Shown here: positions 32,801 through 33,471 of the stretch, one piece after another
Layout of the letters: the number at the start of each line of letters is the position of its first letter
Position numbering within the stretch: position 1 is the first letter of the stretch
NCBI GenBank assembly: GCA_020637165.1
Contig: JACJWN010000003.1
Location: forward strand, 806,001-870,000
Source of the DNA: Mycolicibacterium sp.
GTDB taxonomy: Bacteria; Actinomycetota; Actinomycetes; Mycobacteriales; Mycobacteriaceae
Reading direction: 5' to 3'
Length of the DNA: 64,000 nucleotides
Translations under genes and position numbers: made by a program
Notes under the pieces: generated by a model
Told to the model about the DNA's origin: nothing
The model's input: the letters and a program-made list of their open reading frames with translations, nothing else
Databases searched by the model: none

Positions 32801-33283
32801 CGCGCCACCGGCCCCACCGGCACCGGCGATCCCGGCGTCCCCGCCGGCACCACCGGCACCACCGGTCGGGGTCAGCGCATCGCCATCGGCACCATCACCG
32901 CCATCACCGCCAACACCACCATCACCACCGGTCCCGCCGTCACCGCCATCACCGTTGACCCCCGCCGTCCCGGCACCCAACGCAACACCGCCGTTACCAC
33001 CGGCACCACCAGCACCACCGGCACTGCCCGAACCGCCGGTACCACCGGCACCACCATCCGCGCCCGCAGTCGCACCATCGGCGCCGTCATTCCCGGCCGC
33101 ACCGGCCGCGCCGGTGCCGCCGTCACCACCACGACCGCCATCACCACCATCACCGGAAACAGCACCACCAGTACCACCAGCACCACCAACGCCACCGGCA
33201 CCACCGGCGACCGCCGGATCCGTCGAATCCGCACCGGCACCACCATTACCGCCGTCACCGCCGTTACCCGCGGTCGGCGTCAT
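29867..33283 (-). CDS. PGRS-type glycine-rich protein, C-terminal part (frame split from N-terminal part)
   Basis: This frame encodes 1,138 residues from the ATG at 33283. It continues the same glycine-rich protein as the frame ending at 33264 and is split from it by a 193-bp duplication. It is built mainly of GGxGGxGG (PGRS-like) repeats. At about residues 719-924 (31125-30510) lies a non-repetitive domain starting NTFTFPNGDFTQGLTDW and ending near TNVTVTNNSQPPDG. This domain is rich in Ser/Thr/Val and looks like a beta-sandwich, lectin-like fold. The last 40 or so residues (GATGATGATGAAGATGQQ, then PGQPGVVI) form collagen-like Gly-x-y triplets. No PE domain is present. Role and surface location are inferred. 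Confidence 0.75.
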   Translation of the reverse strand: MTPTAGNGGDGGNGGAGADSTDPAVAGGAGGVGGAGGTGGAVSGDGGDGGRGGDGGTGAAGAAGNDGADGATAGADGGAGGTGGSGSAGGAGGAGGNGGVALGAGTAGVNGDGGDGGTGGDGGVGGDGGDGADGDALTPTGGAGGAGGDAGIAGAGGAGGAAGTGGTGGTAGVAGNSGGQPTSGGNGGDGGDGYDAASDPSAVSGTAGGDGGAGGAGGNYGNGGNGGAGGDGADSTDPAVAGGAGGAGGAGGSGGSIAGDGGNGGAGADGGDGATGAAGTAGADGATAGADGGAGGTGGSGSAGGAGGAGGNGGVALGAGTAGVNGDGGDGGTGGDGGVGGDGGDGADGDALTPTGGAGGAGGDAGIAGAGGAGGAAGTGGTGGTAGVAGNSGGQPTAGGNGGDGGDGYDAASDPSAVSGTAGGDGGAGGAGGNYGNGGNGGAGGNGRDGVDGVTGGDGNGTDGTSGGAGGAGGNGGAGGAIAGNGGNGGTGGDGGYSGKGGDGADGADATIAGADGADGGTGGNGAAGASGGNGGNGGAAGGTGTSGINGNGGAGSAGGDAGIGGDGGDGAAGDAGTPDGGDGGAGGDPGTAATGGAGGAAGTGGTGGAAGAAGSAGSEATSGGNGGDGGAGYANPSGVGGNGGDGGDAGLVGNGGLGGNGGTGGVGATGVNVSTGSTAADGATGAGAAGSGDQIAIAGGAGTSGTGLQNGGNGGAGGSAQNTFTFPNGDFTQGLTDWTALNQRVVLGPTPTGAGWTNSVGGWPTPVDPTQPPGPGESTTLSGGSFTTTVVNAFGSNRAQMVSSGLTSDPQAVVNGPAIVSDNSVTISSGATVSFNWEASGGEDAYNVFAYLLDVSNGNTITLLNATGASASASQPPTTVSTVVNTPGDYKFVFVSGSWDATGGRALGASLSITNVTVTNNSQPPDGIAVGGAGGGGGDGSASGGNGGNGGDGGDASSDFAGANQGGQGGDGGNALFGGGNGGDGGDGGSLTTTAGGTAGAGGNGGDGATGASGGAGYSGGNGGRGGNGGSQAGVAGAGGAGGVGGAGGAGADGGDGGDGGDGGDVVGTGTVGTGGSGGSGGSGGSGGSGGSGGSGGTGGTGIGGTGATGATGATGAAGATGQQGADGTPGQPGVVI
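31962..33085. repeat. Long direct repeat, period 645 bp, inside the PGRS gene
   Basis: About 479 bp at 31962-32440 recurs at about 32607-33085 with only a few changes (for example ttgccgtag/ttgccatag and gcagtcggc/gaagtcggc). The 645-bp offset is a multiple of three, so it adds 215 residues without a frameshift. Confidence 0.85.
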
Positions 33284-33471
33284 TCCCGGCCGCACCGGCC
33301 GCGCCGGTGCCGCCGTCACCACCACGACCGCCATCACCACCATCACCGGAAACAGCACCACCAGTACCACCAGCACCACCAACGCCACCGGCACCACCGG
33401 CGACCGCCGGATCCGTCGAATCCGCACCGGCACCACCATTACCGCCGTCACCGCCGTTACCCGCGGTCGGC
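33086..33471. repeat. Exact 193-bp tandem duplication in the PGRS gene
   Basis: Bases 33086-33278 and 33279-33471 are identical at every position when read side by side. As 193 is not a multiple of three, the second copy shifts the frame; taking one copy out joins the two glycine-rich frames into a single frame of 2,308 residues. Confidence 0.95.

What the first reader, a model, noticed from the sequence alone, without database searches (positions are those of the whole stretch)
33086..33471. Exact 193-bp tandem duplication splits a 2,308-residue PGRS-type gene
Bases 33086-33278 and 33279-33471 are identical throughout. The unit is 64 codons plus one base, so the second copy shifts the frame and ends the N-terminal frame at 33264. 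With one copy removed the two glycine-rich frames join perfectly. Either this is a reversible on/off (phase-variation-like) switch by slippage or recombination, a fresh inactivating mutation, or an assembly artefact of repetitive DNA. Exact identity means it is very recent in any case.
Basis: seen in the sequence. Interest (0 to 1): 0.75.

Follow-up and report, generated by a model that had tools for sequence, protein, structure and literature searches.

The report
Frame-breaking tandem duplication in PGRS-like gene
A giant, highly repetitive secreted-protein gene of an environmental Mycobacterium carries a freshly copied 193-base stretch that breaks it in two; most likely this is ordinary instability of such genes or an assembly slip, not a demonstrated on/off switch.

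Summary
In detail: 33086-33278 and 33279-33471 are identical. As 193 is not a multiple of 3, the minus-strand frame from 36986 stops at 33264, and a second glycine-rich frame is open from 33505 down to 29867.

The gene is PGRS-like, but Pfam finds no PE domain, so it is not a PE_PGRS.

Near-exact tandem copies inside coding-like frames are otherwise almost always in frame: 17 of 19 in the window plus 126 loci (exceptions: this one and a doubtful 37-bp case), and 6 of 6 tandem copies of any location in 400 kb sampled from the same genome. The same gene holds an older in-frame 645-bp duplication. Its closest own-genome paralogue is also frame-broken, in the homologous repeat. No orthologue was found that could show a one-copy state.

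Best reading: a very recent, private, frame-breaking duplication that truncates the gene; excision is possible, switching not shown (0.50). Main rival: assembly or consensus error (0.38). A selected switch is unsupported but open (0.08). Frame-breaking structural variants of pe/ppe genes are already documented (PMC12817950).

The parts
33086..33278 (-). copy 1 of the exact 193-bp tandem duplication (downstream copy in gene direction)
   Evidence: exact identity to 33279-33471; TRF period 193
33279..33471 (-). copy 2 of the exact 193-bp tandem duplication (upstream copy in gene direction)
33264..36986 (-). N-terminal frame from the ATG at 36986 (1,240 codons plus stop); listed by the ORF tool from a TTG at 37070; signal-peptide-like segment (by eye), then glycine-rich repeats
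29867..33505 (-). C-terminal frame (ORF of 1,212 aa from a GTG), glycine-rich from about 33280 downward; an in-frame ATG lies at 33283-33281, 17 nt before the N-frame stop
33264..33266 (-). TAA that ends the N-frame just inside copy 1
31944..32588 (-). older in-frame 645-bp direct repeat, first copy
   Evidence: 604 of 645 bases equal to 32589-33233; includes a 288-bp exact block
32589..33233 (-). older in-frame 645-bp direct repeat, second copy (overlaps copy 1 of the 193-bp unit)
35775..36005 (-). conserved 77-aa segment at the head of the PGRS-like region
   Evidence: matches in 125 of 297 same-genus genomes, own included
30506..31117 (-). non-repetitive 204-aa domain inside the C-frame, no Pfam match
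   Evidence: 54-59% identity to five other same-genus genomes; no Pfam family at E<=10

Best explanation
A very recent, private tandem duplication of 193 bp arose inside the repetitive part of a giant PGRS-like secreted-protein gene, by slippage or unequal exchange in GC-rich repeats (inferred), with only 2 bp of strict junction homology (shown). Since 193 is 3 x 64 + 1, the duplication shifts the frame, and translation from the gene's start should stop after about 1,240 residues; the C-terminal half with its 204-aa domain is cut off from the signal segment (shown for the sequence, inferred for the protein). The state is in principle reversible by recombination between the identical copies, but it is most likely an accidental loss-of-function allele on its way out, and not an evolved switch.
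For: Exact copies and frame logic. The same gene has already duplicated once, in frame, with a 645-bp unit, so the region is duplication-prone. Coding tandem copies are otherwise in frame in 17 of 19 cases in the window plus 126 loci and in 6 of 6 in 400 kb of the same genome (5 of these in coding-like frames), which fits purifying selection or mechanism against frame-breaking copies and hence a young age for this one. In gene bodies flanking the locus I saw no uncompensated frame-changing gap against three relatives, so the assembly is not generally indel-ridden. A frame-broken glycine-rich gene also occurs in a one-contig genome (L105). Published: 8 of 25 intragenic pe/ppe structural differences between two M. 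tuberculosis references are frameshifting, 17 in frame (PMC12817950, section 9).
Against: No reads are available, so the two-copy state is not independently confirmed. The closest own-genome paralogue has two further frame changes about 200 bp apart in the homologous repeat, which could mean that consensus in such repeats is unreliable here. No second genome with the gene was found.
Confidence: 0.5

Rival explanations
1. Assembly or consensus artefact: the gene has one copy of the unit in the cell, and the second copy comes from joining overlapping contig ends or from mis-resolved repeats.
For: The site lies in a 5-kb glycine-rich repeat region with a 288-bp exact repeat nearby. The closest paralogue in the same genome has two more frame changes in the homologous repeat. 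The assembly is a draft, 32 contigs and 94.31% complete. Half (14 of 28) of the structural differences between an old and a new reference of one M. tuberculosis strain agreed with H37Rv and were judged likely errors of the old one, with pe/ppe genes strongly over-represented (PMC12817950, section 8 and abstract). In two other loci of one public MAG (L128, L147) the frame detector flagged many frame switches, as uncorrected indels would give.
Against: In 20 random 20-kb stretches of the same genome no exact tandem copy of 100 bp or more and none out of frame was seen. The assembly runs through PGRS-like genes of 6-9 kb, where 11 contigs of four draft relatives have a match starting within 120 bases of their first base, which suggests long reads here (inference). 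The 193-bp unit does not equal a pre-existing repeat period of the gene.
Confidence: 0.38
2. Reversible on/off switch: gain and loss of the 193-bp copy by recombination turns the full-length protein off and on, and this has been selected.
For: The unit breaks the frame and the copies are identical, which favours precise excision. Tandem-repeat copy number in promoters varies within M. tuberculosis populations at 10^-2 to 10^-3 per chromosome (PMC12817950 abstract, sections 9 and 13). Sequence duplication inside an open reading frame is a published cause of reversible capsule phase variation in pneumococcus (passages in PMC4243769 and the title of Waite 2001 in its reference list).
Against: Only one state is known. 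No orthologue with another copy number was found. Junction homology is 2 bp, which 25% of random position pairs in the gene reach, so no built-in repeat predisposes to recreating this duplication after loss. Other coding tandem copies are nearly always in frame.
Confidence: 0.08
3. Functional split: the two frames are now two proteins, the second made by re-initiation at the ATG at 33283, 17 nt before the stop of the first.
For: The overlap geometry of stop and ATG.
Against: The ATG has no evident Shine-Dalgarno sequence at a usable distance (by eye), and the second protein would lack the N-terminal signal segment. The exact identity of the copies leaves no sign of selection on the new arrangement.
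Confidence: 0.04

Closest known systems
PE_PGRS genes of Mycobacterium tuberculosis and their structural variants
   Same: Long glycine-rich repeat region, in-gene duplications and deletions, mostly in frame with a minority of frameshifting ones (17 and 8 of 25 in PMC12817950, section 9).
   Different: No PE domain; an N-terminal signal-like segment and a 77-aa conserved head segment instead; an apparently environmental Mycobacterium (record titles of relatives).
Reversible tandem duplication in capsule genes of Streptococcus pneumoniae (cap3A, cap8E, tts; Waite et al. 2001, 2003)
   Same: A spontaneous duplication inside an open reading frame that disrupts the gene and could excise precisely.
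   Different: Reversion was observed there; here only one state is known. Known to me from cited titles and passages in PMC4243769 and PMC4022640, the originals were not read.
Promoter tandem-repeat copy-number variation in M. tuberculosis (dop, lpdA-glpD2)
   Same: Copy number of a tandem unit as a source of population variation in a mycobacterium (PMC12817950, section 13).
   Different: Those repeats lie in promoters and alter dosage; this one lies in a coding sequence and breaks the frame.

Membership tests
PE_PGRS family | N-terminal PE domain | tested here: not met
   No Pfam family in either frame at E<=0.001, none in the N-terminal 398 aa at E<=10; none in NCBIfam. That PE_PGRS have an N-terminal PE domain: start of the abstract of PMC7550000, seen in a search listing.
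PE_PGRS family | Glycine-rich repetitive PGRS domain | tested here: met
   Glycine fraction 0.37-0.39 over the two frames, 0.35-0.65 per 20-codon block near the site; repeat families.
PE_PGRS family | Own C-terminal domain after or within the repeats (recalled as variable in the family) | tested here: inconclusive
   A 204-aa non-repetitive domain is present and shared with five other genomes, but it is followed by more glycine-rich repeats.
Phase-variable gene switched by tandem copy number | Copy change alters the reading frame | tested here: met
   193 leaves remainder 1 on division by 3; N-frame ends at 33264.
Phase-variable gene switched by tandem copy number | More than one copy-number state in a population or among relatives | tested here: inconclusive
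   No orthologue found: DNA of the N-terminal region has no long match in 395 other same-genus genomes (best 177 bp at 73%); the slot holds no such gene in three relatives and a contig end in a fourth. No reads available.
Phase-variable gene switched by tandem copy number | Frequent reversible switching with a phenotype | not testable with these tools
   Needs reads, colonies or expression data.

The most novel reading that the evidence does not exclude
A PGRS-like giant protein of a free-living Mycobacterium is switched off and on by gain and loss of a large, frame-breaking tandem unit, a coding-sequence counterpart of the promoter repeat variation known in M. tuberculosis.
Probability: 0.08. 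Interest if true: 0.65.

Novelty: new member of a known kind. Interest (0 to 1): 0.3.

Why it matters
If the duplication is real, it catches the rarer, frame-breaking class of copy-number change in a PGRS-like gene at birth, against a background in which other coding tandem copies are in frame. That makes a current question testable: whether the in-frame bias of such genes comes from mechanism, as PMC12817950 argues (section 9), or from loss of broken alleles. If it is an artefact, it warns against reading single assemblies of PGRS-like genes as evidence for switching.

Tried and rejected
Scan of genome contigs with the C-terminal domain: 102 stretches matched a pattern, none confirmed.

Orthologue by DNA of the N-terminal region: short matches in 131 of 395 other genomes, none over most of the query. 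Orthologue by C-terminal domain: 7 other genomes of 395, five at 53-59% identity and two weak ones with E near 1e-3. In the three of the five whose loci were long enough to judge around the domain I saw no glycine-rich (25% or more) frame carrying it (L017, L018, L020; L019 has one on the other strand; L021 starts near its contig end).

Indel-ridden assembly as a general explanation: not supported by the flanking genes or by 400 kb of random stretches, but not excluded for the repeats themselves.

The automatic frame-switch detector (89 glycine-rich clusters) gives false positives, e.g. in the N-terminal part of L022, so I relied on the five frame tables: clear breaks in the window, L022 and L105; L102 ambiguous (a stop between two glycine-rich frames); L082 no glycine-rich continuation. 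An earlier tally (identity 95% or more, 119 loci and 13 kb of the window) was replaced (93% or more, whole window and 126 loci). Loci in the tally overlap in part, and the 429-bp arrays of L095, L096, L097 and L103 are one family, so the 19 cases are not independent.

Papers: no hit for PGRS with activated sludge and Mycobacterium. The search for PGRS without a PE domain was seen as a listing only. Structure prediction of the C-terminal domain was not possible.

Full report
Observation. Bases 33086-33278 and 33279-33471 are identical; Tandem Repeats Finder reports the same array with period 193. Equality at shift 193 runs over 195 positions (33085-33279), so strict junction homology is 2 bp; 25.3% of 5,000 random position pairs in the gene reach 2 bp or more. 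The hexamer TCGGCG occurs at 33078, 33274 and 33467, close to the three boundaries, a possible slippage anchor but not in exact register with the 193-bp period on the left side.

Gene. On the minus strand, an N-terminal frame runs to a TAA at 33264-33266; the ORF tool starts it at a TTG at 37070, and an ATG at 36986 gives 1,240 residues. A C-terminal frame is open from 33505 to 29867. Frame by frame, the glycine-rich reading passes from one frame to another at the copy boundary, and at no other place in 32900-34000. An ATG in the C-frame lies 17 nt before the N-frame stop. The protein pieces have a signal-like segment (by eye), a 77-aa segment shared with 125 of 297 same-genus genomes, own included, glycine-rich repeats and a 204-aa non-repetitive domain. 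Neither frame has a Pfam or NCBIfam match at E<=0.001, and the N-terminal 398 aa and the C-terminal domain have no Pfam match at E<=10. The gene is thus PGRS-like without a PE domain.

Neighbourhood. Flanking genes are serA-, leuB- and ilvC/ilvB-like dehydrogenases and synthases plus an FAD-dependent oxidoreductase (gene names by analogy, recalled). In relatives G206, G281 and G032 both flanks lie on one contig, about 0.1 to 1 kb apart, without the gene; in G206 the slot codes for a PIN-domain protein. In G130 a PGRS-like gene occupies the slot but runs into the contig end; its N-terminal part is 50% identical over 214 aa. The locus is therefore variable in content, and no one-copy or two-copy orthologue was found: by DNA of the N-terminal region none of 395 other same-genus genomes gives a long match (best 177 bp at 73%), and by the C-terminal domain seven of 395 match, five of them at 53-59%.

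Is it real? For: gene bodies next to the locus show no uncompensated frame-changing gap against three relatives, judged by eye from the gap list; 20 random 20-kb stretches of the same genome hold six near-exact tandem arrays (unit 20 bp or more, identity 95% or more), each with a unit that is a multiple of 3, and no exact one of 100 bp or more; the assembly runs through PGRS-like genes of several kb, whereas in four draft relatives 11 contigs have a match to the gene starting within 120 bases of their first base. Against: the closest own-genome paralogue (L022; 88% identity in the 77-aa segment; 54% over 485 N-terminal residues) has two frame changes about 200 bp apart in the homologous repeat and is stopped there, so two of the long glycine-rich genes of this draft are broken in the same kind of repeat. 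Three other glycine-rich genes of this genome that I fetched are open over the stretches seen (L023/L084, L024, L086). The genome is a draft of 32 contigs, 94.31% complete, and how it was sequenced is unknown to me.

Does it look like a switch? In the window and 126 loci (1.68 Mb, partly overlapping) I found 24 near-exact tandem arrays with a unit of 30 bp or more and identity of 93% or more. Nineteen lie in coding-like frames, and 17 of these have a unit that is a multiple of 3; the exceptions are the 193-bp unit and a 37-bp unit in L144 whose coding status is doubtful. Of the five outside such frames, two are multiples of 3. Counting only frames with at least 20% glycine, some of them ambiguous, 8 of 9 are in frame. 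The same gene contains an in-frame 645-bp duplication (604 of 645 bases). A paper on M. tuberculosis reports the same tendency: 17 of 25 intragenic pe/ppe structural variants in frame, 8 frameshifting, and argues for mechanism, not selection (PMC12817950, section 9 read). The same paper describes phase-variable promoter repeats (section 13 read) and many likely errors in older assemblies of pe/ppe genes (section 8 read). Another paper argues that PE_PGRS genes tolerate frameshifts because out-of-frame stops are rare (PMC13328622, abstract and section 8 read); here the stop comes 12-15 bp after the copy boundary, so there is no such tolerance at this site.

Verdict. The most likely state of affairs is a very young, private, frame-breaking duplication in an intrinsically unstable gene (0.50), with an assembly or consensus error close behind (0.38). 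A selected switch (0.08) has precedent in pneumococcal capsule genes (passages and cited titles; originals not read) but no support here beyond the anatomy. The steps shown are the duplication, the frame change and the rarity of out-of-frame units in this sample; the mutational mechanism, the truncation of the protein and any reversal are inferred.

Noticed in passing
window 43000-53500 and 59000-64000: These tracts are nearly identical to contig C158 of relative G206 (0-5 mismatches per 500 bp), while 41500-42500 and 54000-59000 differ by about 5-12% per 500 bp: a mosaic that suggests recent recombination between populations, or a chimeric contig. The first tract includes a [NiFe] hydrogenase (50082-52805).
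   Followed up: partly
L022 8900-9090 (G000:C23 about 682.9-683.1 kb): The closest own-genome paralogue has two frame changes about 200 bp apart in the repeat homologous to the 193-bp unit; its N-frame stops at L022 9041.
   Followed up: partly
window 30506-31117 (-): A 204-aa domain without Pfam match, shared with five other same-genus genomes at 54-59% identity and with many invariant residues.
   Followed up: partly
window 16712-16921: Array of a 42-bp in-frame unit in a gene for an HU-like DNA-binding protein with a basic tail.
   Followed up: no
L079 3236-3841 (-): In relative G206 the slot of the PGRS-like gene holds a PIN-domain protein instead.
   Followed up: no
L105 about 5400 (G264:C1): A glycine-rich gene in a one-contig genome also changes frame once, without a tandem copy in the tally.
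   Followed up: no
L128 and L147: PGRS-like genes of one public MAG show many frame switches, as uncorrected sequencing indels would give.
   Followed up: no
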